Assembly (NCBI GenBank): GCA_030068145.1
Contig: JAPJBO010000494.1
Coordinates: 103,636-167,635 of the forward strand
DNA length: 64,000 nt
Origin: Diplonema papillatum
Taxonomy: Eukaryota > Euglenozoa > Diplonemea > Diplonemida > Diplonemidae
Reading direction: 5' to 3'
This document shows positions 9,756-42,472 of the stretch, in pieces. How positions within the stretch are numbered: position 1 is the stretch's first letter; every line of letters begins with the position of its first letter. Made by a program: the position numbers and the translations under genes. The notes under the pieces were generated by a model. The model saw only the letters and a program-made list of their open reading frames with translations, ran no database searches and was not told where the DNA came from.

Positions 9756-11369
9756 ATGCGTATTTTCAGCGTCGCAGCCGCGCTGTTGGCATGCTCAGCT
9801 GCTGCTCAAGACACGACAGTGCAAACTGTGTACGGCCCCGTGCAGGGTCGCGTGAACGAGAAGTCAGGAAACCAGTACTTTTTTGGAATTCGTTACGCTG
9901 CCCCCCCCGTCGGCAAATTACGCTATGCTCCTCCTGCGGCACCTGAGCCGTGGACGGAACCAAAGGTGCTCGGTGACCACCCAGAGCCGGAGTGCGCGCA
10001 GGCTAACATGAACGGAGTTATCCAAGGTCAAGAAGACTGCTTGACTCTCGACGTCTACCGTCCGAACACTGGGGCGTCAGGCTTGCCGGTGTTGGTTTGG
10101 ATTTACGGCGGTGGGTTTGTATCCGGCGATGACGACTCGGGAGATAGGTACAATGGCGACAAGTTCGCGGCGTACCAAAACGTCATTGTTGTGGCGATGA
10201 ACTACCGCCTCGGGTCTCTCGGGTTCCTCGCTCTGCCAGCACTCAAGGGTGAGCACAACACGACTGGCAACTACGGGTTGCTCGACCAGCAGTTTGCGTT
10301 GAAATGGGTTCATGAAAATGTGGCCGCCTTCGGAGGCGATCCCGCGAAAGTGACCATTTTCGGCCAGAGCGCCGGCGCCGTGTCCGTGGTGGCCCAGCTC
10401 AGCATGCCGGCGTCTCAAAGGTACTTCCGCGCAGCCATCGCGGAAAGCAGTCTGCCTGTAGGCGACATCTCGTGGGCGTCATACGAGAATGCGACAGCGT
10501 TTGGCCACGCTTTCGTGGAGAAGGTAGGCTGCAACACTACAGATATGCTCGCTTGCCTGCGCAACCTGCCAGTAACAGAGGCTCTCGAGCCTGAGCTCGA
10601 CTGGAGGAGAAACTACCCAGGCGACTTCTCTGAGATCGCCCCTCGATTGATGCCTGTCATGCCGTATTGGCCAGTCATCGACGGCAGCACCTTGCCCATG
10701 TCCCCGATCGACCTGGCCGAATCGGGGGGTTTCCCGGACAAACCGTTCATTATGGGCACCAACAAGGACGAAGGCACCGTTTTTTCGGAGTTGACACCGC
10801 TCATGGTCAACGTGAAACCACCCGTCGCCTTCCCTTTGACGCAGCATGGCTTCAACCAGACGATGCTTCACTTTTTCAATGCGACCACAGCCCGTGCGAT
10901 CATCGACTTCTACGCGAATGCGTCAAGTCCTACCGTCGCTGCGAACACCGTCATCCGCGATTACATCTTCGCCTGTGCTGCCAGACATCTTTTGCGGACC
11001 ATTTTGTCACGGACTCCCAACCGGCAGTCACCGCTTTACACTTATCAGTTCCGACCGAACTTGCACGACAGCTACTTCGGTGATTACCACTCCGCCGAGA
11101 TTCCGTTTGTTTTCAACCAGAGCAGCCCGTTTTGGACCGCCGAGTTGAAGGACCTTTCAACGGTGATGCACTCGTACTGGGCATCCATGGCAACTGAAGG
11201 CAAACCTTCGTGCCCGCAATGCCCGGGTTGGAACCAATATGCTTTCGACAAGGCAACCGACACCGACAACTATCTCGTCTTCGAGACACCGACTCCGAGG
11301 AATGACAAAAACCTCCTCTCGAGCACGTGCGACTTCTGGGACAGAATTGGTTACAAGCAGAATCCATGA
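9756..11369 (+). CDS. Secreted type-B carboxylesterase B
   Basis: Uninterrupted 537-residue paralogue of the upstream esterase, similar along its whole length including the C-terminal CDFWD.IGY.QNP ending. The start is ATG 9756 (the GTG at 9735 is not needed) and gives a signal peptide (MRIFS + AAALLACSAAAQ). Triad: Ser205 in GQSAGA, Glu339 in NKDEGT, His445 in DYHSAEIPF; oxyanion segment YGGGF. Compared with paralogue A, the residue before the nucleophile is Gln rather than Glu and the oxyanion segment has Gly rather than Ala, so substrate range may differ. Tandem duplication followed by divergence is the simplest origin. Confidence 0.92.
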   Translation: MRIFSVAAALLACSAAAQDTTVQTVYGPVQGRVNEKSGNQYFFGIRYAAPPVGKLRYAPPAAPEPWTEPKVLGDHPEPECAQANMNGVIQGQEDCLTLDVYRPNTGASGLPVLVWIYGGGFVSGDDDSGDRYNGDKFAAYQNVIVVAMNYRLGSLGFLALPALKGEHNTTGNYGLLDQQFALKWVHENVAAFGGDPAKVTIFGQSAGAVSVVAQLSMPASQRYFRAAIAESSLPVGDISWASYENATAFGHAFVEKVGCNTTDMLACLRNLPVTEALEPELDWRRNYPGDFSEIAPRLMPVMPYWPVIDGSTLPMSPIDLAESGGFPDKPFIMGTNKDEGTVFSELTPLMVNVKPPVAFPLTQHGFNQTMLHFFNATTARAIIDFYANASSPTVAANTVIRDYIFACAARHLLRTILSRTPNRQSPLYTYQFRPNLHDSYFGDYHSAEIPFVFNQSSPFWTAELKDLSTVMHSYWASMATEGKPSCPQCPGWNQYAFDKATDTDNYLVFETPTPRNDKNLLSSTCDFWDRIGYKQNP

Positions 11370-22297: not shown

Positions 22298-25200
22298 ATG
22301 CCGCTTCAGCGAATGAGCAGGGTAGACAATGGCTCACATGGCGCCGGACCGCAGAAGAAAAAGGGGAACGCGCTGGCGAGGTTCGTGAAGCGCATCGGGC
22401 GTGACATCCACAACAGCATCTTCGGCGACATGCTGCACAACATGCACCGAAGTGTTTGCCTCGGCCTCCTCATTTTCGGATTCATTGTCTCCTTCGTTCT
22501 AATGTGGATTATCGCCGTCGACATTTTCGAGGTAAACGCCGCGGTCACGTTCAAAGTCACCTTCCAAACCGAACCTTCGCTGTCCGTAATGATGGGTACG
22601 AGCTTCGATCCCTTCTCCGTCTCGATTGTGAAGGCCAGTTCGCTCAGTAAGGTCGACGGCGCGACAGTCACGATCTTCGCAGTGCCCACTTCGCCCGCTG
22701 AGCTGAACCTGACCCTCCCACGACCCGGGGGGCTCGCGGGCGTACCGGTCCACACGAGAACGGTTTCGTGCCTGAACTACTTGTATTCAGATGCATCCTT
22801 TTTTGATCTGGACGACGCGTCCGCTTGCTTGGTCGCAACGCGGGGCGGCGAGGCTGTCAGCATTGACGGGGTTGCCACCTTCTCGGACTTTGCTATATTG
22901 AGCGGGCCGTCGGCGGAATACTTGCTTTTGCTGGCGACCAAAGTTCCCTCGAGCGTGTTGAGTGATGGAGACGTCGTCATTGGAGGGAATGTTGAATGGC
23001 AGGTGTTCGTGAAACCGGCTGTTGTCGGAGTTAAGGTTGAAACGGCGCTTCCTTCAGTGATTGAAGTCGGGGTGACACATACGGTGGTCTTGGCGGTCGA
23101 ATACGCGTTTCAGGACTTGACCGTCCTGCAAGCCAAGCGGGCTGCCGTGTCACTGCTCCCCCACTTACTCACCGCAGACATCACTGGCAGGCATGCCGGT
23201 GAAGTTCCTTTGCCTCTGACCCTCGACGCACTTCGGGACGGAAAAGCTGCTATTTACGAAGAAATTTCGAAGGAAAGTTTGCAATTCGCGTTTTACGGCG
23301 AACTCAACGATTCCTCGTTTCTCGTTGGTTCGTTGGCTGCAACGATCACTCTGCCTGTCGTGGTCAAATCCGCCGCATCTACATACTTTTTCCCCGCAGT
23401 TCTGTACGGCGGTCGCCACATTTCCACCTCCACGCAGGACAACGACCTCTTTTCTGAGCCGTCCACCATAGCTCCGGTGACCCTTTCCGAAACCTCACTC
23501 TCCGTCTCTGTTTCATTGCGGAACCCAGCTCTTCTGTCAAATGGAAATCATATTGTTGAAGTTCCAGAAGGAATAACCACCGAGCTTTCCGTTGTCGACG
23601 TTTCCAATGCAGCCGGAACACCTTTGGGGGGCATTCGTGTGTTGACGAAAGTTGTATCTTTCAACGGAGAACCGTGGCCGGCCTTTCGTCATGGAAAACC
23701 TGATCAGGATGATTCTCACAAAGCGCTGATAGCTCCGTGGCTTTCCGAGACCGATGCAGACGGTTCAGTCACAGGTTTTGTATTGTTCAGTGAAAAGGGT
23801 GCTTTGGGCATATATGGCGTGGTATTCGTTGTCAACGGCAGGGAATCTCCAGCAATTATCTGCAACGTCACATCAGCGGTCGCCGGCGTGAACGTTCTTT
23901 TCGAGCCTACGGGTTGGGGTAATAGCGCACACGAGTACACCGTCGGAGAACCGTGGGACAACGCTCCTCGGTTTTTCGTCTTTGACGCCAGTGGCGCGCC
24001 TATCCGCGGCAAGAAAATCACGGTTGTTCCATCGCATGCAGCATCCCTGGGTTTCCACTACGAAAGCTTCGCTTCCGATGGCCGTGGCTCCGTGTCGTTG
24101 GCTGACATCAGGGTCACGTACGCATCCACCTCAGGTGAGCATACCGTCATTTTTCTTGTTGATGACTTTGTTGCGCTGACCCTGACCGTCAACCTTCGAT
24201 ACCCGACAACAGGGATATCTCCATTTGCTTGTGCGCATATTGCGACCTTCTCCAATGTGGGTGTGCACTTAAGCGTCCTAGACACGTCTGTAGTGGAAGT
24301 CGCTGTTTACAACTACAGAGGCATGCCGCTGCCAGGGGTTTCCGTCCGAGCCGCATTGGGCGGATCGTCTTCTGAATCGGTTGCCCCCGTCAGTTTTGTG
24401 ACGAGTGCGCAACCCGACGCTTTGTATTGCGGGCAGTCGCGGGAAACACCATACGTCACCACGAATGCCTCAGGTATGGCTCGTATTCCGTTGTCCATAT
24501 CCTGCGCACTGCCTACCATCGCATCGCTCAGCTTTGCATGCTTTGGCAGCACCCGTCGCTTTCCACCTGCGGGTATTCTCGCTTCTGTCTCGCAACCATC
24601 GGGCCTCTTGTCGTATCTTGATTCTGTGACGGTTAGCATTGCGCACACCACTACCCCGCAAGGTGCTTCTACAGCGTCGGAAATCACACTCCGCGCTGAC
24701 ATGCCAACAGCCGGTATCGTTAGCAGGATTCACGCTATCCGCTATCCGTCCCGCTTGTCAAAAGTGCTTGGCGTGGCTGCTCCTGTGTCCGCGGCGGCAT
24801 CGTCGACGCCAGAAATTACTCTCAACGCCGTTGATGCCCCGGGGGACTACACGGTTGCAGTTCAAGCATTTGGCTTGTGGAGCACGCGTACCTTCCACTT
24901 CAGACTGCGTTCTCCGGTGGAAAGTGTCAATGTTGTCCAACAGACTCGCACTTACAGTGAAGCCATCAATCTTTCTTCCGGGAACATCAACATCGGCGAG
25001 CCTTTCTCAACCCAGCCATCTGTTCGTCTTCTGAGTTCTGAGGGGTATCCCGTGCCTGGAGCTCGTGTGGTTGCTCTGACGGGTCCGCCCACACACGCCA
25101 CGAATATCTTTTACACGGGTTCCGCCCTGTACCACGGCGCCCTCGCCGAGATGTCGATGACGGCCGACTTGCCCTTGAGCAGTCCGGCCGATGTAAACGG

Positions 25201-28200
25201 GATAGCCAGCTTCTCCAACTTAGGGTTCGTCGGCGGACCTACAGGTAGCGCATTCCGTATCTGCTTTGCATTTCTGAACATTAATGAAACGATCACAAGT
25301 CTTGATGGAGTTTTCACGTGCGAGGCGACGTCACGTACAGTTTCCGGGAGCGCCACTGCTGTCTTTCAGACGCAAGCAGTGCCCATTGCCTTGGCCGGCG
25401 GAGCTGTGAGTATCTCGCCTGTGGTCGCCGTGTTGAGCAGCTTGAACGTTCCATACTCTCACCTGTTGGCTGTAGTCGACATAGTGCCGTTTGACTCAGA
25501 AGCCAAGCTGGTTGGCAGCATTGATCAGAAAGGCGTCGTTTTTAAAGGCGTTGCCGCCATGATTCTAGACGGGCTGACCTTTTCCGCGAGCAGTGATGTC
25601 GGCATGTACCGTTTGAAAGTCACTGTTCCAGGGTCGGAAGCTGTGTCAACCGGCATTGTTTTGTCAAAAACACCGCATGCCTTGCAGCTGTTCACCGATG
25701 TTCCAAGCCGAGTGTCAGTCGGTACCCCGTGGACTATTAGAGTGGCCGCTCGTCTTGCCGACGGCGAGCCCGTTTCAGGAGTGGTCATTATAGCGACCCT
25801 AGTACAGGAATCGTCCGACAAACCTTGTTATACATCGCCTTGCAGTGCACTTTCTTCTGATTCGGACTCAGCAGTAACAGACATCTACGGCATGGCGACA
25901 TTTCGCATTATCGTCTCTTCCGCGATGACAGGAAACTATTCCCTCTCATTCTCAGCGAGCAGCGATGTTTCGGGGTTTGTGGACGCGGCAACCAACTTCA
26001 AGGAAGTTGCACTTCAATACGGCGGTGCGCGGGTGCCCGTTAACAACATAGTTCGCATCCCTGACCAAGTACAAAGCTACGCACAGTCTCGAGTCGTCAA
26101 CGATGCGGTGTATAAGATAGCCTCGAGCCTTGTCAGTTCCTTCACATCTTTTGCGTCGCGGGTGACGGTAGACTCAGCGCAGTTCGAAGTGTACAACAGC
26201 GTCGTTTTGATTAACATAACGAAGCAACCTGCCAGCGGCACGTACACGGCAAGTACTGGCAACTACGGCTCCTTTACCGTGCAGCCGGTGGTGAGGGTCC
26301 TGGGCACGGGAGGATTTCCGCTGGCTTTCCAGGATGTCTCCGTGACTGTTGTGGAAGGGACTGTGGTCTTTGAGTATGATACCACAGTGCGCACGGATGA
26401 AACAGGGGAGTACGCTTTCCGAGACCTGCGGATAGTAGCAGGCGACCCGGGTGAGTATCGCTTGGTGTTCCTGTGCAACGGGGAGCAGTCTGATCCGTCG
26501 GAGCCGATTACGCTGCTGCCGTTCAACGATGTCATCGATTTCGGATCGACGTACGTCAAATCATTAGCGATTGGCTGTTTGGCCGTTCCTTGGCTCGCCG
26601 CCAACACACCGGGAAGCGCGGCTGCCTGGTCGGTGGTGGCCCTCGGCATATCTGTGCTTCTGCCCCTGCTCATGATAAAAATGATCCCCGGAATCTTTGA
26701 CACGGAGCACACCTTTGTAAAGGCGACTCTCGTCTTAACTATGGTTTTGTGGCTTGCGATCACCGTGCACATAGTCCGCTTACTCGTCAGACAGCATAGA
26801 GGCGTCCGTGTCGACAGGCAAGATCGGTTGACCAATACGTACCGGTACGTTCAATGGATTGCGCGACATGTTCCGTTGGTCGCAAAGAAAGACCTGAAAA
26901 ACTACCGCGAGATGCAAGCAGCCGCATCTATCGGTTGGATCCGCGGATGTGTGCTTTCCGTGTACAACTGGTACCTGGCTTGCAGATACGGCGCTGAATG
27001 CAGAGTCAACTTGACAGGCGATTCCAACGAGCCGACATGGGTTATCGAGGGCGGCATTACATTGCATCGATGTCCAACATCATATGAAAACCCGATTGAT
27101 GCCTTGCGATGGAAGTACGCCAGGCTCTTTACAAAAGCGACAAAAGAGGAAACGAGGGTCGCCTTCAGTTTGTATGGCGTTTCCGAGCGGATTCTGGTGG
27201 AGGAGGAGACAGCGACGGTTCAAGAGCTCACCGAGGTGTTCAATCGCCCCGTGTCGAACGTGTACGTCACCAGTGCGCAAGACAGTGGGTATTTAGCAGT
27301 CTGCTACTTGCACGTCACCATCGATATGCCCGCAGATGAAGTTGTCGCTACAGCTAAGAAGAAGCTGCTGCGGCAGAAATTGTGCGGGGGTCGCGGGCTA
27401 GTACACAGCATTCATTATGTTGAAGATGGAAAGAATCGAAGAGACAACGATTCAGAGTGGACCATTTGGGATACACTCGCACTGAAGTTTTATTTTTTGG
27501 TGGTCCCCGTTATACTCGAAGTCGGCTCGACGTCAACTTGCGCAACCAAGGAGGTCACAGGCGAGGGCGACGAAGAGACCACAAAGTACCACCTCGGCCG
27601 CATGTGGGTGCGTCATCAATTACCACCAGGGTTCAATCGTTCCAACGGCGACCCGTATCCGGATTTTTGGTCGCCAAACTACAGCGCAGAAAACGCGGTT
27701 GTCCTTCAAGAGGTGACAGGGGAAACACAAAACCAAGTACCACTCGACATTCTCAAACCGGAGCACGGCGGCCGGCCAGAAGGTGTATCGGAGCCCATCT
27801 ACTATCCATTCCGCTTCCTCCTCAGTGCCGCTATTTGCGCAGTGGACATTGTCGTAATGACACTGCTTTGCTGGTGGATCTTTACGGTGCTGAGCGCATA
27901 CCTGCTGCTCCTGCAAAACAACTTGCCGGAGCCGCCTGACATGTCACAGTCGGAGAAAGACGACCTCAACAGCGACATTCAGAAGTATTTGTCAGCGTCC
28001 ATTGAAGCTGTTGCCGAAGCAGATCCGCGGTTCGTCTTCATGTCCAGTTTCGTGCCGACCGTCGAGAACGTCGATTTCGTCGAATTGTGGAAGCGCGCGT
28101 ACTACCTGACGAACCAGCTGATCTGGTCAATCAGACTAGGGGGCATCATGGGCACCGCAGCTGGAACACTGGCCACGTGCATGAACTGGATTCTACTCGT

Positions 28201-30892
28201 TCGCAATGCGCCTGTAGTCATGAAGCGGACGCGCCGAAACGACCCCGTCGAAAAGACCATCGCGACCAAGGCTCTCTGCACCAAGGCCGATGCTTACGTC
28301 GGGCTGCAGGCGGTCCACCTGGTTCTGGCGTACATAGTCGTTTTTGCTATAGTGTGGATAGTTTCCATTGTAGTTTTCACGCCTTGGATTATCAACCAAG
28401 TCATCAGCACCATCGGTTTCACCTTTATCCTCTCCACTCTTTCTGGGATGACGACACTTTTTGCAGAAATGTTTGTTCGTGCAGCTTGGGCACCGGGCAC
28501 CCGGGTAAAAGAGCCGGTCCGATACTCACGGTGGCAGTTGATTGCCTTGATATTTCACATCATGTCCGCTCTCGTCGCCACAGCGTCGCGCTGGATTACG
28601 AGCATTGTGGCACAGACGCTGTTGTTTGCTCGATTGGATCTTGAGCTCTTCCCCTCAAGCCTGAAGTCTCTTGACAGGGGATACTGGACGTACCACTCGA
28701 TGATGTACACCGACGAAACGCACAACAATCCTATTATGCGCGTGTTCATGGCCATTATGCTGACGGATTATCTCTTTAAACCGCCTGTGGCCCCACCCCT
28801 CACAGTTCAGTACATCCGATTTGTTCCAACGGAGGCACGGAAGGGATCGTTTGCCAGGATCAAGTCAATTCGCGTTTACACAGACCGCGAGCCACTGTCT
28901 CCCTGCGGTCGCGCTCTCATGCGAAAATGCGCCTACGACAAGCGACCCGACTTTCGATTCTACCGATCGCCGCTCCCCGTGCACTCTTCTAAAAAGGAAG
29001 GCGATGGCTGTTTCATTTGTGGTTCGAGGAACATGACCGAGTACTTTGCCCCTCAGTCACCGGGGCTTGTGTCCTATGTCCGTGTCCTGCGCAAGAACTT
29101 CGACGGCTCTTTTTCCAGCTACGCCGACGGCGCGCGGCTTCGGACGCAAGAACCGTGCGAGGTGACTTCTGCGGTGATTAACGGGGCGGCCTGCATGAAA
29201 TTGAGCGAACCAGCGCAGGTAAAGGGCTACTGCCTCAAAGGAGAGGCACCGCCTGGTGAGTGGCGGGTGCTGGGCTCCGCAGACGGGGACCTGTGGGTGA
29301 TTCTTCACGAAGAGTCAGCGGAACAAATGACGTCGAGTATTTGGTTCGATGTGTCAAAGGAGCCGAGCTCTCTTGCTCTTTGCACGGCATGCTATACGAG
29401 AAAGAGAGTCGCTGAAGGGCGGCAACGAGAATTGATTTCTGTGCCTTTGCGGCTTCACCGGTCTCCGCGTGCGGACGGCAATCGTCCGGACAACATCGAA
29501 CCGAAATCAGGTGTAGAACACGTGACACCTTGCTGCATAGGGGGCGATGTCGCTTTTGACAGCAAAGACGGTTTGACCTTCGTGACAGACTGCCCGGTCG
29601 ACCACTTGCGGGGTTATGATGTTACGACAGGTTTGGACGCCGACGATGATCCCATCTCGTGGAAGTTGATGATCTCGTCCGATTTAAGCACTCCGGCAGA
29701 TGAGTGGCTGGTGGCGCATGAAGTCCACCGCACGCCTTTGAAGCGCGACGTGCGGGGCATGACGACCCCGATTTTCCCCTGCTGGCCCACGCCGGCAGCG
29801 AATGTCGTTCAGCTGCACAGGCAGTCGAATATTCTTCGTGAAGTTGAAAACTTCCCAGTCATGCGCAGGCTGGTTCAAATCCGAGCTCTTCACGTCTTCG
29901 GTGCCGGTGCCGCAGACGCTGTCGGTGAAAACGCCTGCCATGTCAGCGACGAAGCTACTTACGAGTTGTTCGCCCCAAGAAAGACGGGGAGTAGTTTCTT
30001 CGCTCTACGCGCCGAGCGGGAGGCGTATCGGAACATGCGGTGCCACAAGGGAAAGTGGGCATTGGCTTTTATGTTGGTGATGAACCCGTCTCTTTTGAAA
30101 GAGCGCAAAGTACCGCGGTGCGCTGCTACAGCAGGTCGATCATTCAGCGTCGCCGCCAGTCACAGTGCTGCACTGCGCATGCGGACGAGTATCGACATGC
30201 GAAAATGGAGACAGCCTGAATTCGACGAAGACGCCCAGGAAACCAGTAGCCAGCCTTCGCCGGCGGCATCGTCCCCCGGCGAAATGGCCGGTTCGACCAT
30301 TACCGTCACGTGTCCCGGTTGTCCTGAAATTGAAGGACAGTACCAACCTTCGAAGACCATCCGCGTTCTCCGCGTGCTCAACGGAGACACAGCGGCGATC
30401 CCTCCAGGCTCAGTCGCTGCGATTTGCAGAGCATACGTTGATAAGGTCGACCTTACAGGACACGTTCGATCGCTGGTTGCCAACACAGGCCTTAGCATTG
30501 ATTTGCGGCCTTCGGAAGGTGATGCTGTCCTGCTGTCTCATACGATGGCAGATAACGCCTTTGACCCATCTACAGGCGAATCAACGGCAAAAGTTCTCGT
30601 CGTTGAGTATGAAGAAGTGTCGTGGGCCCGACCAGAAGCGTCCCAGCAAACTCTCTTCGGGTTCGACCACGAAGCGAACGTTTCGTGCTGCATCCATCGC
30701 CGAGCTGAGTCGTGGTTCGTTGGACCTGCTATTCCCGCGCCTGGGTTTTCGTTCTCCTTTGCGATCACCGAGCCAAACCCCGTCGTGACTGACATCGTCT
30801 CCCCGCTACTAAAGTGGCACGTGTGGTCTTCACAGGACGCAGCGTGGCCTAGCAGCGCACCTCTTACCGTTTCTCGAAGCTGCCACAACTGA
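22298..30892 (+). CDS. Giant membrane protein: Ig-like ectodomain plus STRA6-like (RBP-receptor) membrane domain
   Basis: Intronless, 2,864 residues from ATG 22298 (the GTG at 22256 is not a plausible start). Order: basic N-terminus; transmembrane segment ~52-76; a ~1,330-residue ectodomain of repeated beta-rich Ig/invasin-like units (recurring 'G.P..GV.V', 'TD..G.A.F' and 'G.YTL.V' patterns); then about eight hydrophobic segments at ~1437-1463, 1471-1498, 1837-1872, 1940-1968, 2001-2032, 2037-2058 and 2078-2110. The last runs into DLELFPSSLKSLDRGYWTYH (Asp2126 at nt 28673) and 'HNNPIM', which aligns with the corresponding C-terminal segment of vertebrate STRA6 (LDPGYYTY, then HPAM). A second STRA6-like signature, KGKWALAF..VMNPSL, occurs at ~2584, separated by a ~440-residue insertion that has a CxxC pair and two discoidin-like 'W.vlGS.DG..W' units. 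STRA6 carries retinol across membranes; the ligand here is unknown. The final ~270 residues are soluble and unrecognised. Confidence 0.75.
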   Translation: MPLQRMSRVDNGSHGAGPQKKKGNALARFVKRIGRDIHNSIFGDMLHNMHRSVCLGLLIFGFIVSFVLMWIIAVDIFEVNAAVTFKVTFQTEPSLSVMMGTSFDPFSVSIVKASSLSKVDGATVTIFAVPTSPAELNLTLPRPGGLAGVPVHTRTVSCLNYLYSDASFFDLDDASACLVATRGGEAVSIDGVATFSDFAILSGPSAEYLLLLATKVPSSVLSDGDVVIGGNVEWQVFVKPAVVGVKVETALPSVIEVGVTHTVVLAVEYAFQDLTVLQAKRAAVSLLPHLLTADITGRHAGEVPLPLTLDALRDGKAAIYEEISKESLQFAFYGELNDSSFLVGSLAATITLPVVVKSAASTYFFPAVLYGGRHISTSTQDNDLFSEPSTIAPVTLSETSLSVSVSLRNPALLSNGNHIVEVPEGITTELSVVDVSNAAGTPLGGIRVLTKVVSFNGEPWPAFRHGKPDQDDSHKALIAPWLSETDADGSVTGFVLFSEKGALGIYGVVFVVNGRESPAIICNVTSAVAGVNVLFEPTGWGNSAHEYTVGEPWDNAPRFFVFDASGAPIRGKKITVVPSHAASLGFHYESFASDGRGSVSLADIRVTYASTSGEHTVIFLVDDFVALTLTVNLRYPTTGISPFACAHIATFSNVGVHLSVLDTSVVEVAVYNYRGMPLPGVSVRAALGGSSSESVAPVSFVTSAQPDALYCGQSRETPYVTTNASGMARIPLSISCALPTIASLSFACFGSTRRFPPAGILASVSQPSGLLSYLDSVTVSIAHTTTPQGASTASEITLRADMPTAGIVSRIHAIRYPSRLSKVLGVAAPVSAAASSTPEITLNAVDAPGDYTVAVQAFGLWSTRTFHFRLRSPVESVNVVQQTRTYSEAINLSSGNINIGEPFSTQPSVRLLSSEGYPVPGARVVALTGPPTHATNIFYTGSALYHGALAEMSMTADLPLSSPADVNGIASFSNLGFVGGPTGSAFRICFAFLNINETITSLDGVFTCEATSRTVSGSATAVFQTQAVPIALAGGAVSISPVVAVLSSLNVPYSHLLAVVDIVPFDSEAKLVGSIDQKGVVFKGVAAMILDGLTFSASSDVGMYRLKVTVPGSEAVSTGIVLSKTPHALQLFTDVPSRVSVGTPWTIRVAARLADGEPVSGVVIIATLVQESSDKPCYTSPCSALSSDSDSAVTDIYGMATFRIIVSSAMTGNYSLSFSASSDVSGFVDAATNFKEVALQYGGARVPVNNIVRIPDQVQSYAQSRVVNDAVYKIASSLVSSFTSFASRVTVDSAQFEVYNSVVLINITKQPASGTYTASTGNYGSFTVQPVVRVLGTGGFPLAFQDVSVTVVEGTVVFEYDTTVRTDETGEYAFRDLRIVAGDPGEYRLVFLCNGEQSDPSEPITLLPFNDVIDFGSTYVKSLAIGCLAVPWLAANTPGSAAAWSVVALGISVLLPLLMIKMIPGIFDTEHTFVKATLVLTMVLWLAITVHIVRLLVRQHRGVRVDRQDRLTNTYRYVQWIARHVPLVAKKDLKNYREMQAAASIGWIRGCVLSVYNWYLACRYGAECRVNLTGDSNEPTWVIEGGITLHRCPTSYENPIDALRWKYARLFTKATKEETRVAFSLYGVSERILVEEETATVQELTEVFNRPVSNVYVTSAQDSGYLAVCYLHVTIDMPADEVVATAKKKLLRQKLCGGRGLVHSIHYVEDGKNRRDNDSEWTIWDTLALKFYFLVVPVILEVGSTSTCATKEVTGEGDEETTKYHLGRMWVRHQLPPGFNRSNGDPYPDFWSPNYSAENAVVLQEVTGETQNQVPLDILKPEHGGRPEGVSEPIYYPFRFLLSAAICAVDIVVMTLLCWWIFTVLSAYLLLLQNNLPEPPDMSQSEKDDLNSDIQKYLSASIEAVAEADPRFVFMSSFVPTVENVDFVELWKRAYYLTNQLIWSIRLGGIMGTAAGTLATCMNWILLVRNAPVVMKRTRRNDPVEKTIATKALCTKADAYVGLQAVHLVLAYIVVFAIVWIVSIVVFTPWIINQVISTIGFTFILSTLSGMTTLFAEMFVRAAWAPGTRVKEPVRYSRWQLIALIFHIMSALVATASRWITSIVAQTLLFARLDLELFPSSLKSLDRGYWTYHSMMYTDETHNNPIMRVFMAIMLTDYLFKPPVAPPLTVQYIRFVPTEARKGSFARIKSIRVYTDREPLSPCGRALMRKCAYDKRPDFRFYRSPLPVHSSKKEGDGCFICGSRNMTEYFAPQSPGLVSYVRVLRKNFDGSFSSYADGARLRTQEPCEVTSAVINGAACMKLSEPAQVKGYCLKGEAPPGEWRVLGSADGDLWVILHEESAEQMTSSIWFDVSKEPSSLALCTACYTRKRVAEGRQRELISVPLRLHRSPRADGNRPDNIEPKSGVEHVTPCCIGGDVAFDSKDGLTFVTDCPVDHLRGYDVTTGLDADDDPISWKLMISSDLSTPADEWLVAHEVHRTPLKRDVRGMTTPIFPCWPTPAANVVQLHRQSNILREVENFPVMRRLVQIRALHVFGAGAADAVGENACHVSDEATYELFAPRKTGSSFFALRAEREAYRNMRCHKGKWALAFMLVMNPSLLKERKVPRCAATAGRSFSVAASHSAALRMRTSIDMRKWRQPEFDEDAQETSSQPSPAASSPGEMAGSTITVTCPGCPEIEGQYQPSKTIRVLRVLNGDTAAIPPGSVAAICRAYVDKVDLTGHVRSLVANTGLSIDLRPSEGDAVLLSHTMADNAFDPSTGESTAKVLVVEYEEVSWARPEASQQTLFGFDHEANVSCCIHRRAESWFVGPAIPAPGFSFSFAITEPNPVVTDIVSPLLKWHVWSSQDAAWPSSAPLTVSRSCHN

Positions 30893-32521: not shown

Positions 32522-35500
32522 ATGTCGGGGCTTGTAAAGTCGCAGAAGAGATATCAAACAAAAGATGTTTCGAACTGGCGATGTGTCGGCCGTGTAGCCG
32601 ATGAAGGGTTTCTGATGCACTCCGTTACGGAAAAGGCGCAGAAGGTTGTCGCAAAGCTGGGATGGTGTCGTCCGGACGCCGACGGGAAGATCAGAAGCAA
32701 CCCCGCGTTCACGGCTCGACTTGATACGAAGTATATAGTGAAGGCATGTCGCGTGAGTGTGTCCCCGGACCACCTCTTCGTGGGTCTTGTAGGCATTCGA
32801 AAGAAAGCCGGCGGGTATTTAGCAATCCTCGGTGCCGACGGACCTCGAAAACCGGTTATTCACCAAGAAGTCAACTCGCCGCACCCATCCCCGACTGTTC
32901 TGGGAATCGACAAGACGGTGCTCCCGCAGAAATTGTTCTTGAGTTCTTCTGCGTCGCGCTGCGTAGTCATAACGCACGACTTTCAAACGTTCATTTGGAA
33001 ACGGGTGTCGAAGACTGCCTCCGAGTGGTTTGGCGCGTGGTACAAAATAAACCACCCAGCCCCGGTGTTATTGCCTGCTTGCATGGACGTTGTTTTCCCT
33101 TCGGCTGTCGAGCTCAGGTGCACCTTTGCGAACTTGAAGCCTGTTTCCATTTTGCCCACGCAACCCTTCTCCGACCTCCAGAACATCGGCACCAGCTCTT
33201 GTTCTGACGCCTTCCTCGACAGCAAACGATTTGTAAGCGAAGGCCTGCCTGCACAGCCTGGGGCCAACCCAGGCGCCAGCGCTCCAAGCGCTGCTCCTCT
33301 CGTAGGTGCAGTTAAAAAACTGTGCTTCGTTGTGCAGTATGCTACGGTCAATCTATCGGATGCTGCTGATACTTACAGCATCAAACAGCAACCTCCTGTA
33401 GGCTCATATGGCTTGATTGACGTGGGCATGCGTGAGTATGCGACGGCGTTACCCGAAGGGGGCGGCGGGGTCAAGGATTTACCGTGTATGAAGTGGGACG
33501 AAGACGCGACGTTGCTCGCAGTGTTGCTGCAGATGGCGAAGAAGTCGTGGGTGGTGTTTTGCTGCCCCGGTTGCCCAATGCTGAACAGTGTTGTCATCCC
33601 ATCCCAGCTGACAGAGCCCAGTAGGATGGCATGGGTCAACGATGGGATATTCGTCGCGATCTGTGACAAGGCTGGCACAGCTGCAGTTCTAATATCACGG
33701 CTAGGCTCCGTAGTCACAATGGTTCCTTCCGAGCATGCATCGCCACTCAACGTCTTGCAATTCGGTTTGAAACCCGGACTTGGCTCGTTGACAGCATGCG
33801 CCTCAGCTGAGGATGGTGTCACTATGTGCATTTCCAACGGGGAAGCTTCCATCAACACAGTCCTTAGCTTCGGTGTGCCCCTGGCCCAAGCAATCCAAGA
33901 AGCGCGATTACCCGATTGGGCTGATGACGAACCGGGACAAGTCGTCCGAATCTTCGCTACTCTCCCGTGGCTAGTGACTCCGTCGCTATCGACTCACATA
34001 ACAAGTTTCATCACGTTTCTATTCACGCAGCACCTCATTGAGCTACAGTCGGCCGCAGCAGTGAACCCGCTCTCTGCTACCGACGCGAGCAGATCACGAG
34101 GGCGCCAAGCACCAAACACAAACAGCCCCGGGTCTTTGATTGTAGACAGGGTTCAGAAAATTGTAAACGTCTACAAGTCGTGCGTCCAGTCCCTTCGGTG
34201 GGTCGTGGCTTGCCTCCCCATAAACGGGCTGGCTTTTGTAAGCACCATCGCGCACAATGCAACAGTGATCATATTGCAGCAACTCTGCAGTAAGCTAGTC
34301 TCATTGCTTGTAAGCAAAGAGGCGCTTGATGGGGAGAGAAAGCAAAGCGCCGAGGGCCTCGTGCTTGTGTTCGACGCGGCGTTCCACTGCATCACCTGGC
34401 TCGAAGACGAAATGTCTACCATGACACAGTTCGGATTGCAAACCGGTTGTATCAACAGAGCCGTGCAACCCACTTCGTGGCTCTTCACCGAGTATTGGAT
34501 GACGGTCGGCACTGCTGTGACCGACTGTCTGCGAAGGCTGGAGTCGCCTGCCGACAGCCAGTCTAAGCAGAAGAAGGCGCATAACGGGCATCACCCGAGC
34601 CCCACGGGTAACGAACGAGGAAGCGGACTCCCCGTATTCAACGCAACTATCGTCGCGGAAGCAGAGAATCTGCGCACTCTGGTCGATGTCGTTTTTAGAA
34701 AACTTGTGTCGAGCAACTACAACCTCTCCGATGATGTTAGCATTCTGAGTCCAAGTGACTTGACATTGGTGCATAAAGGGCACGAGGCCTACATCAACAA
34801 ATCGATTGGACAAGGCGTGAAGCATTACCGGGAGTCAGACCGATTAGACTGCGTCTTCGCAGCTCAGTTGTCATCCGGAGACGGCCCAGGCGCAGTAGAA
34901 ACGGTTATTTCAGCGTTGCTGCCGTTCGTGGAACCGTGGAACGACGTCTGGTCGCACTCAGTGACTTTGAGACAACAACAACAGCTCTCTTCAAGGCTGT
35001 GTGTAGCGCTTGCCTACTTGTATACGATCGCCACCCACGAGGCGCAGGGTATCTATCCCTCTGTACTGCCCCCTATATTTTGTGACGGGCGAGCATCCAC
35101 GTCGTTAGTGGTCGCCGGCTACTCCGCAAGCGATCGAGAGCGTGACAAACTTGGTGACGTAGGGCATCTCTCGTTCCCCGAAGCGACGTATCACTTGCCC
35201 TTGTCAGAAAAGGAGGCTAGAAAGGTTGAGAAGAACATTTGCATGATGGCACGGGGTGAATCGGCTGAAGTTACGGTCGAAATGTGGGTAGCCCTTGGGC
35301 ACCCGTTAGAAGCTCTGCACACGGCATTGCGGTTTGGCCTTGTGGACGATGGTATTAATATTCTGAAGTTGATCAACTATCAATTGTCTGTTCAGCCCGA
35401 TTGGACGGAGTATCTCCTTCCGGTTACACTTCCGTGCCAGGCAAAAGTGAGCGCTACAGGTCCGGCGAGCTGGGGTGAGGTAAAACAGTTCGAGAGGTAT

Positions 35501-38500
35501 CATCAATGCCGTTCCGCGGTGAAAGCATACATGCTGTCCATGGGGATGAAGGGGAGCGACAGCGTGGCAAAGATGTACTCGAAGGTAGCTTCTTCTCCCA
35601 ATTCCGCAGTCCATGGCGGCTACATCTGCCCGTCGTGTGTTACGAGCTTGCTCACCTTCTTCGTCATTGATGCTTTGCGTAAGGGCTCCCCTGCTAAAGC
35701 ACAACAGTTGTTGAACATCAGCTGCGATGGCTTAAGCAAATCAATGGTGCCCAACCTCCGCGAGATGGCTGCTGGGCACATCGTCCAGCTCGCAAAAACT
35801 CTTTTGAAGTCGCTACCCGTATTTGATGTGCACGTTGACATCTCATCAACCCCGCCCCCGATCACGACAGTGCATCAAGTCCTCAAGGGAACGTCAGACA
35901 GCAGTGTAACAGACGACATCCAGAAGATACTGGTGGAGTTTTTCACCGGGACAACTGGCACGACTTCGTTAAGCTCCGCGAAGAATCCACTGGATTTTCA
36001 GAGGGCGAACACCAGCATGTTGGCAGCGTCGTATGGGACAACAGCGTCGGCCGCCACACTTGCCACCTTCTCGAGCACACGGGTCAACCAGGAGTTTTCC
36101 AGTGGTGAAGGTATTGCATCGGAACTGGTAGTGGCTGTTGTACGGCAGGTGGCGAAGCTACTGGCATGGGCTCTGATATTCCTCTGCCCTGCCACTGAAA
36201 GCGCTCGGTGCGACAGCTCGGTCCTCACTTTGCTGAGGGAGTACCGCGAAATCTACGAAGACAAAAGTGACCTCGGCGACACCCTCATCCAGAAACTGTC
36301 GCGCCAGACATCCGGCAGCCGCTGCCTGCAGAACGCGGTGCGGTACCTGTGGGCGCTGCATGTTTGGTACAAAGTTCACACCTTCAGCACCGCCGAGCAG
36401 TCACGCATTTCTCTGCCACCTGGCTGGGATGAGCGGAACGAAGGCAACGCAAAAGAGGCGAACATGGCTCCGCCGGGCGTGTCGTGGGCGTCGAAATTAA
36501 TCATGTTCTCGGGCGACATCTGGAAACCAGATGAGGTGCAGGGAGCCTTGCTCTTGACGTTAGAGCTATGCAAAGATAGCGATTCGGTGTACAAAGCACT
36601 GTGCACGAGCTTTTGTGCCACCGCAAACCGAGACACGGTGCTGACTATTAGCCAAACCAGGAAGGGTCAGTACAATCGGGTGGTGCGAGAGCTGTCGGAG
36701 GAACTGCGGGAGAAGCTTCCCCGAAAGCAGAAGGAACACTTCGAAGTTTTTAATGGGCACGTGAAGGCGGCGCACGAGAAACGAGCCCAGCTGCCGGGGA
36801 CGGATGGCTCCGTGTCCGACGGCCTGTGCTGCGCTTTCGAGATGGACACTGACTTCTGGACGTTCACTGCCCAGCTACTCAACGACAGTGTGGTGGCCGC
36901 GCCACACAAGGTGACGATTGCTGGTGAGGTTCGGGCTGCCGACGCAAACCGCCAGGGCCCCCAGCCAGGGTTGCTGAGGCTGCCCGCTGTGAGCAGACTG
37001 TTTTTCAGGAAAAAAAACGCACGAGGAATGCACGGTGCGAGAATAGGCAACACTGAGTTGGTTGTACCCTATGGAGTACAGCAACCAACTTTGGATCCGG
37101 GCACGAAGGTAAGAGAAGATGACACAGTGGTGTCAGACGACGATGACACAGAGACACCGGAAACAGAAACACCAAGGCGACACAAGCCACGGAAGTCCAA
37201 AAAATCGAAGACCGCGCGGGCAAGAAGGGGCTCGCAAGATGGATCTGGCACAGGTAACATTCATGACGCAAACAGCAACAGCGGGAACGGCGCAGCGTCA
37301 GCGAAGTCCACCACCGACGCAAAGTACCTGCACACGGTTCCTGCAGCCGTTCTGTCTGCGATCAACATCAGCAAGCCCGAGATTCGAAAAGGAATTGCAG
37401 GAGTGCCTGGCACGACTCCGACTTTGCATCTTGCTGCCACGTCCACACAGATGGCAACCAGCGGTAACTCGCCATTGAAAAAGGAAACTGCGGAAGCTGT
37501 TCTCACGAAAACAACAGCCGGCGTCCTTGAATCAAAGAAAGGCAAGAGCTATCCTCCCGTGACTTCTGACGAACCGACACTGTTCGAAAGCGAGACGATC
37601 AAAGAGTACGCAGTGGCGCGCGTGGCAAAAGGTGCCGACGTGCTAACGTTTCCTGACACCGCGTCCTGCCAGCTACCCCACATATCCGGCGCAGCAGATC
37701 CGAATCTTCCTCTCGACCTGCTACCCGTTGAGTACGGCGGGTTTCTGCTTGACGCGCAACTTACGCCTCCACCGTCACAGCCGGGTTCTCCGAGGTTCCC
37801 ATACATGCCCTACATAGGCACTCCACGGCAGCTTTTACTGAATTCGCCGCTTCGGCGTCCGGATAAGATCTCACAGTTCTTAGCCTCACCCAACACCACC
37901 CGCCACCACTCGCCTCGTCGACGTGAAGAAGCCGACTCAGGGACTACATACACCACCACCAATACAGGCACATCATACTCAGATCGCACGAAGTGCGGGT
38001 CCTGGACAGGCACACAATTGCCGTCAACACCCACGGAAGTCGATTCCGCCCCGAGTTTACGTTCGGAGAATTATGCCGTGATGGAGAGACGACAAAAAAG
38101 GAGAGAAAGACGACTTGAGGAAAGAGGCGAAAAGAAAACGGCCCAAGAAAAGGCCAGGCGTTCTAAAATCGACGACAGAACAACAGCACAACATGACAAT
38201 AGAGGGGCTGCAGAGGTGCACTACCATTACGCAGGCGAAGCGGCAACGTCACAGCATGTGCCGAGTAAGCATCGCAGAACGCGGTGCAGCCACCACGGTA
38301 CTGGTAATGCAGGGGTGTGCAATAAATGCGGTAAGCACTTGATGGAAAGGCGAATGAAGTCTGTCGAAAAAACGAAGCAGCGGGTGACAAATTCTCTCCT
38401 GCTGCAACCACCGCAGAACCCGCTTCTATCAACGGATGCCATGGTGGCTTCGATGTTGCGCGCAAAGCAAGCGGCACATGCTCCCTCGGCGGGAACAAAA

Positions 38501-39655
38501 GGTGGCGACTACCGCAATGTGTCGCTACTCGACCCGAAGAAGTTTGAACCGCCACCTCTGGTTAACTTTTCGCAGCATGCACCGCCAGTCCTCCTCAAAA
38601 CAGGGCAGCGTTGCTCCCCGACGGCGGGCATTCTACCGCCTGAACGACTTGTCGAAACAGTTGATATTCCGCCTGTTCAGCATCCTCTACCTGACCAGCC
38701 GAGCCACGCGGTGGTTCGCACTTCTCCAGCTTCAATCAGAAGGCTTTCTCCACAACACCACGAAAGAGCTCATGCTGACACCCCATCAACTTCCCACATT
38801 GTGAAGGACACCGCTGACACCGCTGACAAGGCCGCAGCAGCTGACCAATATGCCCAGAAGAACAAGCAACCTCTGAGTGAGGACGCGAATGACGATTCGA
38901 CTGCAGTGCCACAAAAAAGTGTGCGTGTTTCAGGAAGGCGCGATTCGTATGCACAAGACGTAACAATTGATACCCCATCGAGGCTCTCGGCACCGCACAG
39001 TGACATGGCAACAAGTCCTCTCCAGCGCACAGTCTCGACAGCACTCGACAGGGAGACAAGAGAGAGCCGTATCCAGAAGGAATACACGCAGCCTTCAACA
39101 CCACGCGGTGCCCCCGTGACAGACGTCGCAACACTGATAGGTCAACCGGTACTCACCGCGACGGAGGAGCTATTGTACGCAAAGTACATCAGGCATCTCG
39201 GTATTACCACCTCTGACGCTATCATCACAGGCGATATTCCCTTGGTGTCCTTTACACCCACCATCAACACGGCACCAACGGACATTCCAGACTCTATCGC
39301 AGAAATCAACGCAAAACACGAAGCTATGGCAATGACACAAGTAACCCAGTCCTCCACCAGCCCTGAGCATCTAGCAACCAAGGTTTCACCGACGAGACGA
39401 CCCACGCTCCCGCAGCCGACAACTGTGCTCGAACAACCGCAAGCAGCTAGCAGCCCAGAGTCTGCACTTGAAAAAGAGGAAGAAGCTAAGAAACAAGCTT
39501 CACTCGACGCGCTGCTCTCGAAGATGATCGAAAGACAGGAGCAAGCAGCGGCCGACACTGGACGCGAGTTGGCAGCAGCTTTCTCAGAAACACTCAAGGT
39601 TTGTGCTTTCTGCGATGCACCAGTAACTGAAAGCGCAACACTGTCACACGTGTAA
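32522..39655 (+). CDS. CPLANE1-like ciliogenesis/planar-polarity effector
   Basis: Intronless 2,377-residue product whose ATG (32522) directly follows GGCAG, a plausible trans-splice acceptor. The N-terminal third is beta-rich and WD40-like. Around residue 370 the run 'AWVNDGIFVAI..KAG..AVLIS..GSVVTM' matches in order the 'SWTHDSLFLTCMLKRGSLVLLT..GELLTL' segment of vertebrate CPLANE1 (C5orf42/JBTS17), and later helical segments (GHPLEALHTALRFG, ~924) resemble its 'LDLLFIGGLVPEAVWLAHKLG' region. Residues from ~1500 are Ser/Thr/Pro-rich and disordered, with one compact Cys/His motif (CSHHGTGNAGVCNKCGKH, ~1921) that may bind zinc, and a final coiled coil ending SETLK. CPLANE1 acts with INTU and FUZ at ciliary basal bodies to recruit IFT-A; a flagellar basal-body role is inferred. 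An alternative 3' end uses an intron 39599-39707 (GTTTGT...TTTGCAG) and stops at 39785. Confidence 0.6.
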   Translation: MSGLVKSQKRYQTKDVSNWRCVGRVADEGFLMHSVTEKAQKVVAKLGWCRPDADGKIRSNPAFTARLDTKYIVKACRVSVSPDHLFVGLVGIRKKAGGYLAILGADGPRKPVIHQEVNSPHPSPTVLGIDKTVLPQKLFLSSSASRCVVITHDFQTFIWKRVSKTASEWFGAWYKINHPAPVLLPACMDVVFPSAVELRCTFANLKPVSILPTQPFSDLQNIGTSSCSDAFLDSKRFVSEGLPAQPGANPGASAPSAAPLVGAVKKLCFVVQYATVNLSDAADTYSIKQQPPVGSYGLIDVGMREYATALPEGGGGVKDLPCMKWDEDATLLAVLLQMAKKSWVVFCCPGCPMLNSVVIPSQLTEPSRMAWVNDGIFVAICDKAGTAAVLISRLGSVVTMVPSEHASPLNVLQFGLKPGLGSLTACASAEDGVTMCISNGEASINTVLSFGVPLAQAIQEARLPDWADDEPGQVVRIFATLPWLVTPSLSTHITSFITFLFTQHLIELQSAAAVNPLSATDASRSRGRQAPNTNSPGSLIVDRVQKIVNVYKSCVQSLRWVVACLPINGLAFVSTIAHNATVIILQQLCSKLVSLLVSKEALDGERKQSAEGLVLVFDAAFHCITWLEDEMSTMTQFGLQTGCINRAVQPTSWLFTEYWMTVGTAVTDCLRRLESPADSQSKQKKAHNGHHPSPTGNERGSGLPVFNATIVAEAENLRTLVDVVFRKLVSSNYNLSDDVSILSPSDLTLVHKGHEAYINKSIGQGVKHYRESDRLDCVFAAQLSSGDGPGAVETVISALLPFVEPWNDVWSHSVTLRQQQQLSSRLCVALAYLYTIATHEAQGIYPSVLPPIFCDGRASTSLVVAGYSASDRERDKLGDVGHLSFPEATYHLPLSEKEARKVEKNICMMARGESAEVTVEMWVALGHPLEALHTALRFGLVDDGINILKLINYQLSVQPDWTEYLLPVTLPCQAKVSATGPASWGEVKQFERYHQCRSAVKAYMLSMGMKGSDSVAKMYSKVASSPNSAVHGGYICPSCVTSLLTFFVIDALRKGSPAKAQQLLNISCDGLSKSMVPNLREMAAGHIVQLAKTLLKSLPVFDVHVDISSTPPPITTVHQVLKGTSDSSVTDDIQKILVEFFTGTTGTTSLSSAKNPLDFQRANTSMLAASYGTTASAATLATFSSTRVNQEFSSGEGIASELVVAVVRQVAKLLAWALIFLCPATESARCDSSVLTLLREYREIYEDKSDLGDTLIQKLSRQTSGSRCLQNAVRYLWALHVWYKVHTFSTAEQSRISLPPGWDERNEGNAKEANMAPPGVSWASKLIMFSGDIWKPDEVQGALLLTLELCKDSDSVYKALCTSFCATANRDTVLTISQTRKGQYNRVVRELSEELREKLPRKQKEHFEVFNGHVKAAHEKRAQLPGTDGSVSDGLCCAFEMDTDFWTFTAQLLNDSVVAAPHKVTIAGEVRAADANRQGPQPGLLRLPAVSRLFFRKKNARGMHGARIGNTELVVPYGVQQPTLDPGTKVREDDTVVSDDDDTETPETETPRRHKPRKSKKSKTARARRGSQDGSGTGNIHDANSNSGNGAASAKSTTDAKYLHTVPAAVLSAINISKPEIRKGIAGVPGTTPTLHLAATSTQMATSGNSPLKKETAEAVLTKTTAGVLESKKGKSYPPVTSDEPTLFESETIKEYAVARVAKGADVLTFPDTASCQLPHISGAADPNLPLDLLPVEYGGFLLDAQLTPPPSQPGSPRFPYMPYIGTPRQLLLNSPLRRPDKISQFLASPNTTRHHSPRRREEADSGTTYTTTNTGTSYSDRTKCGSWTGTQLPSTPTEVDSAPSLRSENYAVMERRQKRRERRLEERGEKKTAQEKARRSKIDDRTTAQHDNRGAAEVHYHYAGEAATSQHVPSKHRRTRCSHHGTGNAGVCNKCGKHLMERRMKSVEKTKQRVTNSLLLQPPQNPLLSTDAMVASMLRAKQAAHAPSAGTKGGDYRNVSLLDPKKFEPPPLVNFSQHAPPVLLKTGQRCSPTAGILPPERLVETVDIPPVQHPLPDQPSHAVVRTSPASIRRLSPQHHERAHADTPSTSHIVKDTADTADKAAAADQYAQKNKQPLSEDANDDSTAVPQKSVRVSGRRDSYAQDVTIDTPSRLSAPHSDMATSPLQRTVSTALDRETRESRIQKEYTQPSTPRGAPVTDVATLIGQPVLTATEELLYAKYIRHLGITTSDAIITGDIPLVSFTPTINTAPTDIPDSIAEINAKHEAMAMTQVTQSSTSPEHLATKVSPTRRPTLPQPTTVLEQPQAASSPESALEKEEEAKKQASLDALLSKMIERQEQAAADTGRELAAAFSETLKVCAFCDAPVTESATLSHV

Positions 39656-41778: not shown

Positions 41779-42472
41779 GAGTGCAATCAGGTTGCGAGAG
41801 CTTTTGTGAAGTACTCGCAACAGTTTCATCATATAGTGAATGGCACGGCAACACAAAAGGATCCTGCTCAACCACGTCAACTGCATGCACTACATACTAT
41901 TATTTACGTTCAGATAGATTAGAGATTTCTCATGAAAGGAATACCTACAGGGCAGTTGTGTGAGCGTTTGTAGAATTTGTAATTAATAGAAGTTAGTTCA
42001 CCACCGTTGAATTGCATGTGGCATTCTCGATGGTACGGATGGAAGAAAATGCAGCAAACATTCGATACAACACCTAAGAGAGTCACAGAAGTCTCTAGGA
42101 AAAGCAGTGATTGTTTACGGATATGATGCTAGCCTGTGAATTGTTACCAGTGCATCTTTCCCCCGTCCACGAGGTTGGGCTTTTGTTAAGTGAGGTCCAA
42201 CATAGAGGCATGTGATAAAAAGAAGAACTCACAGAACAAAAAAGTCGCTATTGGCTCTTTCTCTTTTTCTTCGTTTGACGTTGTTCTTGTCGATGTCCAA
42301 CACATTTTTGGGGCGTGCCACTCCTTCGGTAGACAAGTGATGGTAGAGATGTCGTCGTGTCGCGCACACTCTTTTTTCACAAGATTTTGCTCCTTTGTAA
42401 ATTGCAAAGTATGACTTCGGTACAGCCAGTAATTTAATTTGAAGGCAGGTGGGGGAATCCTATATCTTATCG
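41779..42472. other. Intergenic region
   Basis: After the open extension to 41922 there is nothing recognised up to the PDK-type gene; 'gaaggcag' at 42441-42448 is a candidate trans-splice acceptor 24 bases before its ATG. Confidence 0.5.

What the first reader, a model, noticed from the sequence alone, without database searches (positions are those of the whole stretch)
22298..30892. STRA6-like retinol-receptor domain inside a 2,864-residue protist surface protein
Two separate STRA6 signatures occur in the right order: D-x-G-Y-x-T-Y followed by H-x-N-P (nt ~28640-28745), and W-x-L-A-x-x-L-x-x-N-P-x-L (nt ~30048-30090). Hydrophobic segments before them align in order with STRA6 helices. Unlike vertebrate STRA6 (~670 residues), this one has an N-terminal ~1,330-residue Ig-like ectodomain and a ~440-residue soluble insertion between the two signatures with discoidin-like units. 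This may be an undescribed class of lipophilic-ligand uptake or adhesion receptor.
Basis: partly seen in the sequence, partly recalled or inferred. Interest (0 to 1): 0.85.

Follow-up and report, generated by a model that had tools for sequence, protein, structure and literature searches.

The report
STRA6-like core in protist receptor
A very large predicted surface protein, apparently from a single-celled eukaryote, carries the membrane core of the animal vitamin A receptor STRA6, including its calmodulin-binding piece, with large new outer and inner domains attached.

Summary
The core observation is real. Window 22298-30892 (+) is one open frame of 2,864 residues. Pfam RBP_receptor (STRA6 family) matches at E = 1.4e-11, 44.3 bits, cut-off 25. 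Only the C-terminal part of the model is matched: positions 400-543 and, on a separate fragment beyond a 419-residue insertion, 578-604 (E = 0.018, alone below cut-off). Reversed and shuffled copies gave no such match (0 of 7). The first signature is STRA6's juxtamembrane loop: both partners of the salt bridge D539-R511' are kept (D2126, R2098). The second is CaMBP2, a calmodulin-binding peptide of STRA6. The insertion sits where zebrafish STRA6 has a cytosolic loop missing from its model (575-597). Not supported: the N-terminal half of the model, RBP-binding glycines, discoidin units. Structure prediction failed (pLDDT 51.8 and 31.1), so the fold is untested. A split gene and 14 of 14 long-frame loci on one strand suggest a diplonemid (inference). 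Best reading: a calmodulin-regulated sterol or terpenoid uptake receptor on a STRA6 core, not a retinol receptor. New variant of a known kind.

The parts
22298..30892 (+). whole gene, 2,864 aa, no internal stop
22298..22441 (+). basic N-terminus (aa 1-48; 9 K/R, 3 D/E), inferred cytosolic
   Evidence: positive-inside rule (established knowledge)
22451..22519 (+). signal anchor / TM (aa 52-74)
   Evidence: hydropathy
22532..26557 (+). inferred ectodomain aa 79-1420, 1,342 aa, 8 N-glycosylation sequons, low K/R; weak macroglobulin/Ig-like beta-sandwich signals
   Evidence: repeat test negative
26621..26677 (+). TM segment h1 (aa 1442-1460); a marginal hydrophobic stretch lies just before it (about aa 1420-1437, by eye)
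26720..26776 (+). TM segment h2 (aa 1475-1493), followed by a basic segment (8 K/R, 2 D/E)
26798..27796 (+). soluble domain aa 1501-1833, inferred cytosolic (but with 4 sequons), before candidate TM6; no family match of note
27809..27910 (+). candidate STRA6 TM6 (aa 1838-1871)
   Evidence: hydropathy
27911..28126 (+). candidate extracellular TM6-TM7 loop (aa 1872-1943); contains no glycine, so no YGG-type RBP motif
28127..28201 (+). candidate TM7 (aa 1944-1968), weakly hydrophobic
28304..28381 (+). candidate TM8 (aa 2003-2028); RBP_receptor match of fragments starts here
28397..28471 (+). candidate TM9 (aa 2034-2058)
28532..28633 (+). intramembrane (IM) helix equivalent, aa 2079-2112; R2098 aligns with STRA6 R511
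28634..28765 (+). juxtamembrane loop and following segment, aa 2113-2156; D2126 aligns with STRA6 D539; LDRGYWTY...HNNP
28766..30022 (+). 419-aa coding insertion (aa 2157-2575) at the place of the STRA6 cytosolic loop that is missing from the deposited model (zebrafish 575-597)
   Evidence: no family match of note; model unusable
30023..30130 (+). CaMBP2-like segment, aa 2576-2611
30131..30889 (+). C-terminal soluble domain aa 2612-2864, inferred cytosolic; its last 247 aa have no family match

Best explanation
The gene encodes a plasma-membrane receptor-transporter of a protist, probably a diplonemid. Its membrane core is homologous to the C-terminal part of STRA6. Shown here by sequence: the TM8-TM9-intramembrane-helix-juxtamembrane-loop block, the inter-subunit salt-bridge pair and the CaMBP2 peptide, in STRA6 order. 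Inferred: the protein dimerises through the intramembrane helices, which hold a lipophilic molecule between them (a sterol or another terpenoid rather than retinol, since cholesterol was suggested to occupy that site in the STRA6 map). The 1,342-residue ectodomain replaces RBP4 docking and captures the carrier, particle or prey surface that supplies the lipid. Ca2+/calmodulin on the CaMBP2-like segment and the two large inserts (aa 1501-1833 and 2157-2575) regulate release into the cell.
For: RBP_receptor E = 1.4e-11, colinear match 578-604 on a separate fragment (14.2 bits, E = 0.018, below cut-off alone). No RBP_receptor match in any of 7 control sequences. phmmer against all PDB sequences: zebrafish STRA6 5sy1_A is the only hit up to E = 1, E = 0.19, two stretches in order. 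R511 and D539 are both kept, as are R525-L526-D527 and G541-Y542. CaMBP2: 12 of 32 identical, 0 of 1000 shuffles. Segments after h2, after TM7 and after TM9 are basic (8 K/R to 2 D/E, 8 to 3, 5 to 1), and the segments predicted external are not. The insertion falls in the STRA6 loop missing from the deposited model.
Against: 34 of 158 aligned columns identical in the main stretch, so distant; that stretch has an i-Evalue of 0.48 and the second, alone, only 0.9 bits (i-Evalue 280). Nothing matches model positions 1-399. The candidate RBP loop has no glycine. Only two strong hydrophobic segments precede candidate TM6, where STRA6 has five helices (nine in all), and the topology needs an odd number. 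The segment just before TM6 is acidic (2 K/R, 4 D/E) and that between the marginal helix and h1 is uncharged, and aa 1501-1833 holds 4 sequons, all unexpected on a cytosolic side. AF2 model poor; no STRA6 among the 50 of 68 Foldseek matches listed, none with E <= 0.001. PMC9333335 set aside proteins matching RBP_receptor only above position 400 as non-TM matches; the match here is also above 400, though it includes TM-like segments. Ligand, transport and calmodulin binding were not tested.
Confidence: 0.5

Rival explanations
1. Adhesion receptor with a borrowed dimerisation/calmodulin cassette: the IM-JML-CaMBP block only assembles and Ca2+-regulates a large adhesin (bodonin- or DGF-1-like in architecture), with no lipid transport.
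For: Large Ser/Thr-rich ectodomain (11.9% S, 8.2% T, 3.1% N; bodonin averages 14.8, 10.4 and 5.6%), multi-pass domain and intracellular domain resemble canonical bodonin (PMC4728078 passages). STRA6's N-terminal helices and RBP loop are not recognisable.
Against: No bodonin or DGF-1 family among the 3 Pfam matches up to E = 1. The kept parts include those around the proposed ligand site of STRA6.
Confidence: 0.3
2. True retinol or carotenoid receptor of the STRA6 kind with a diverged N-terminal half: the ectodomain docks a secreted retinoid carrier.
For: Same family by profile; [quoted passage not shown]
Against: YGG-type RBP motif absent; N-terminal half of the model unmatched. No retinoid carrier was searched for.
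Confidence: 0.12
3. Chance or composition-driven match among hydrophobic helices.
For: 34 of 158 identity is low; the IM peptide alone does not score above shuffles (59 of 1000 reach it); PDB E-value only 0.19.
Against: Pfam E = 1.4e-11, 0 of 7 controls, the largely non-hydrophobic JML and CaMBP2 peptides are the best-matching parts, and two matches are colinear.
Confidence: 0.03

Closest known systems
STRA6 (zebrafish, PDB 5SY1; Pfam PF14752 RBP_receptor)
   Same: TM8-TM9-IM-JML block, R511/D539 salt-bridge pair, CaMBP2 peptide, order of these parts
   Different: 2,864 aa against 670; N-terminal helices unmatched; no YGG-type RBP motif; 1,342-aa ectodomain, 333-aa and 419-aa soluble inserts, 253-aa C-terminal tail
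RBPR2 (second RBP4 receptor)
   Same: described as homologous to STRA6 (PMC9992173 passages); its Pfam label is recalled
   Different: no direct comparison made; S-Y-L motif of RBPR2 not seen as such in the candidate loop (by eye output)
Bodonin (Bodo saltans), DGF-1
   Same: architecture: large ectodomain, about seven TM helices, intracellular domain (PMC4728078 passages)
   Different: no such family among Pfam matches; membrane domain is STRA6-like

Membership tests
STRA6 / RBP_receptor (PF14752) | score above Pfam's curated cut-off | tested here: met
   44.3 bits against 25, E = 1.4e-11; 36.3, 35.9 and 36.4 bits for TM fragments
STRA6 / RBP_receptor (PF14752) | match to the N-terminal part of the model (positions 1-399) | tested here: not met
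   no RBP_receptor match in aa 1411-1907 up to E = 5; in aa 1391-2161 one stretch only, 401-543
STRA6 / RBP_receptor (PF14752) | nine TM helices plus one intramembrane helix | tested here: inconclusive
   hydropathy gives two strong plus one marginal segment before candidate TM6, then TM6-TM9 and IM, TM7 weak
STRA6 / RBP_receptor (PF14752) | JML-IM salt bridge D539-R511' | tested here: met
   both residues present: D2126 and R2098 in the phmmer alignment; meaning from PMC5954442 passages; the bridge itself not shown
STRA6 / RBP_receptor (PF14752) | CaMBP2 calmodulin-binding peptide sequence | tested here: met
   12 of 32 identical, 0 of 1000 shuffles
STRA6 / RBP_receptor (PF14752) | actual calmodulin binding | not testable with these tools
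   needs protein
STRA6 / RBP_receptor (PF14752) | RBP-binding residues Y336, G340, G342 in the extracellular loop | tested here: not met
   72-residue candidate loop has no glycine; residues
STRA6 / RBP_receptor (PF14752) | STRA6 fold | tested here: inconclusive
   single-sequence AF2, pLDDT 51.8; Foldseek uninformative
STRA6 / RBP_receptor (PF14752) | retinol uptake | not testable with these tools
   needs cells or protein
Bodonin / DGF-1 | sequence similarity to DGF-1 or PSA domains | tested here: inconclusive
   no such Pfam family up to E = 1; that Pfam holds DGF-1 models is recalled, and bodonin sequences themselves were not available
Discoidin / F5-F8 type C (insertion) | profile match | tested here: not met
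   no discoidin match; AF2 model pLDDT 31.1
Macroglobulin / Ig-like beta-sandwich (ectodomain) | profile match above cut-off | tested here: inconclusive
   MG4 22.6, 25.9 and 19.7 bits by fragment, cut-off 24.7

The most novel reading that the evidence does not exclude
An unrecognised class of protist surface receptors in which a STRA6-type dimeric, calmodulin-bound lipid conduit is fused to a giant capture ectodomain, showing that the STRA6 core predates animals and vitamin A vision and originally handled sterols or other prey lipids.
Probability: 0.3. Interest if true: 0.85.

Novelty: new variant of a known kind. Interest (0 to 1): 0.62.

Why it matters
[quoted passage not shown] A distant relative outside animals, with core elements kept and the carrier-docking motif gone, would show which parts are the older machine and which the vitamin A adaptation. 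It would also bear on the role of calmodulin in STRA6, which PMC5954442 calls enigmatic (passage), although calmodulin is reported to promote apo-RBP4 binding and retinol export in vitro (PMC8951293 passage).

Tried and rejected
Relatives: viral-contig scans with aa 1841-2621 and with the whole protein found none; a genome-contig scan with aa 1928-2161 found none. All three used single-sequence patterns, so only close relatives could be seen, and none of these collections is of eukaryotes. No whole genome is held. NCBIfam gave nothing. Rfam and tRNA scans of the window gave nothing.

Structure: two AF2 jobs without alignment gave poor models. Foldseek on the first was uninformative; the second was not searched.

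Ectodomain as a repeat family: the leave-one-out profile recovered 0 of 6 segments convincingly, best i-E 0.0034; one other stretch reached 6.5e-6 in one build. BLAST of the protein against itself found no internal repeat. A reading with only two helices at aa 1439-1498 and an extracellular aa 1501-1833 was set aside because the segment after h2 is basic (8 K/R, 2 D/E) and because candidate TM6 must run inside to outside; it is not excluded, since aa 1501-1833 holds 4 sequons.

I first thought of a kinetoplastid like Bodo; set aside because a PDK-like gene in the window is split (Pfam BCDHK_Adom3 positions 1-83 at 42449-42964, and 117-159 in the downstream frame, below cut-off there), with a GT-AG intron read by eye, while introns are very rare in kinetoplastids (PMC7859406 passages).

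Literature on STRA6 in protists: 'STRA6 + Bodo saltans' (0 papers), 'STRA6 + protist + homolog' (3), 'RBP_receptor / PF14752' (2), 'STRA6 + kinetoplast' (2); broader searches showed only part of their hits (20 of 1,783; 12 of 2,827). None of the listed titles is about it; of the papers found by these searches I opened passages of PMC5977736, PMC9333335 and PMC9992173 only. The InterPro species list of PF14752 could not be looked up; non-animal members may already be in it.

Full report
Observation. Nt 22298-30892 on the + strand is one open frame of 2,864 residues. Codon usage scored against six other genes of the window is best in this frame for 7 of 9 parts; the 80-residue IM-JML piece and the 36-residue CaMBP2 piece score higher in frame +2 and are short.

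Homology. Pfam RBP_receptor matches at 44.3 bits, cut-off 25, E = 1.4e-11, best stretch 464-543 of 605. Fragments give positions 400-543 for aa 2008-2156 at E 3.5e-9 to 4.8e-9 and, separately, 578-604 for the C-terminal motif at E = 0.018, below cut-off on its own. A phmmer search of all PDB sequences returns one hit up to E = 1, zebrafish STRA6 5sy1_A, E = 0.19, with aa 2002-2156 on 413-569 (i-Evalue 0.48) and aa 2576-2611 on 599-634 (0.9 bits, i-Evalue 280, so weak alone). Controls: one reversed, four locally and two fully shuffled copies gave 0 of 7 RBP_receptor matches; two of them had unrelated weak hits (E 0.074 and 0.048). The zebrafish JML and CaMBP2 peptides score 64 and 47 ungapped; 0 of 1000 shuffles reach either. 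The IM peptide does not stand out (59 of 1000), and its best ungapped place is not the aligned one.

What the signatures are. [quoted passage not shown] Residue numbers agree with those names, so D2126 (of DRGY) is D539 and R2098 is R511; both are kept, as are R525, L526, D527, G541, Y542, Y545 and P558. PMC7154012 (passages) gives CaMBP2 as a 27-residue peptide holding HWQLLYTLVNNPSLVGSR and names it as the region with the most extensive calmodulin contacts (its printed residue numbers, 554-571, do not fit a 27-mer or the numbering). The second signature is its equivalent, 12 of 32 identical over a slightly longer stretch, net charge +5 against +4 for the 27-mers. The insertion of 419 residues therefore replaces the loop between the JML region and CaMBP2. 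It is coding sequence.

Topology (inferred). A basic N-terminus and a strong signal anchor (aa 52-74) put the 1,342-residue ectodomain outside; it holds 8 of the 14 sequons counted in four soluble regions and is poor in K and R. Basic segments follow h2, TM7 and TM9 (8 K/R to 2 D/E, 8 to 3, 5 to 1), which puts aa 1501-1833, the TM7-TM8 loop and everything after TM9 in the cytosol, as in STRA6. Against this, aa 1501-1833 has 4 sequons, and the segment just before TM6 is acidic. The model needs an odd number of helices before aa 1501; two are clear and a third is marginal. So STRA6's N-terminal five helices are reduced, replaced or too diverged to see; there is no profile match there.

What is missing. 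The RBP-binding residues Y336, G340 and G342 (PMC9992173 passages) have no counterpart: the candidate loop has no glycine. Discoidin units have no profile or PDB support. Ectodomain signals are weak macroglobulin/carboxypeptidase-regulatory-like ones, and internal repeats are not established. Structure prediction without relatives failed, and Foldseek on a 51.8-pLDDT model is not evidence either way.

Organism (inferred). All 14 open-frame loci of 300 aa or more are on the + strand. A PDK-like gene at about 42449-44345 is split: BCDHK_Adom3 positions 1-83 in one frame (61.7 bits) and 117-159 plus HATPase_c further on. The first intron reads as GT-AG by eye, about 144 nt; a second, about 330 nt, has an AG end but its start was not pinned. 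Introns are very rare in kinetoplastids (PMC7859406 passages). In Diplonema papillatum nearly 90% of contigs over 50 kb include unidirectional arrays of 5-120 genes (PMC10161547 passages), and its introns are mostly GT-AG (PMC12621601 passages). A diplonemid is my best guess; no phylogenetic test was made.

Mechanism. What is kept is the dimer core, residues around the proposed ligand site and the calmodulin peptide; what is not found is the RBP4 dock. That pattern fits a lipid conduit fed by another capture module, here the ectodomain, and regulated by Ca2+/calmodulin. Transport, ligand and regulation are inferred. The main rival is an adhesin that uses the core only for dimerisation; its architecture resembles bodonin (PMC4728078 passages), but no sequence relation was seen.

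Novelty. PMC5977736 calls STRA6 animal-specific (passage). My searches of open papers (in full listing; 38 and 66 in part) showed no title about a protist STRA6, but the Pfam species distribution could not be checked. PMC9333335 set aside proteins matching RBP_receptor only above position 400; the present match is also above 400, but it spans TM-like segments, the JML and CaMBP2.

Noticed in passing
window 42449-44345 (+): Pyruvate/branched-chain dehydrogenase kinase-like gene split by introns: BCDHK_Adom3 1-83 upstream, 117-159 and HATPase_c downstream; argues against a kinetoplastid.
   Followed up: partly
window 60118, 61947, 62410, 63168 (+): Repeat-rich end of the window: a 33-base block occurs four times without mismatch, with CAG-rich arrays nearby (by eye).
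   Followed up: partly
window 6970-8649 and 9735-11369 (+): Tandem pair of carboxylesterase-family genes (COesterase E 5.1e-106 and 2.6e-107).
   Followed up: no
window 55561-58557 (+): Hormone-sensitive-lipase-like protein with both HSL_N and an abhydrolase domain.
   Followed up: no
window 32522-39655 (+): 2,377-aa protein directly downstream with no Pfam match at E up to 0.01; might be a ciliary scaffold (guess).
   Followed up: no
window 2-1747 (+): Protein kinase whose N-terminal part looks like a response-regulator receiver domain by eye; Pfam gave no receiver match at E up to 0.01.
   Followed up: no
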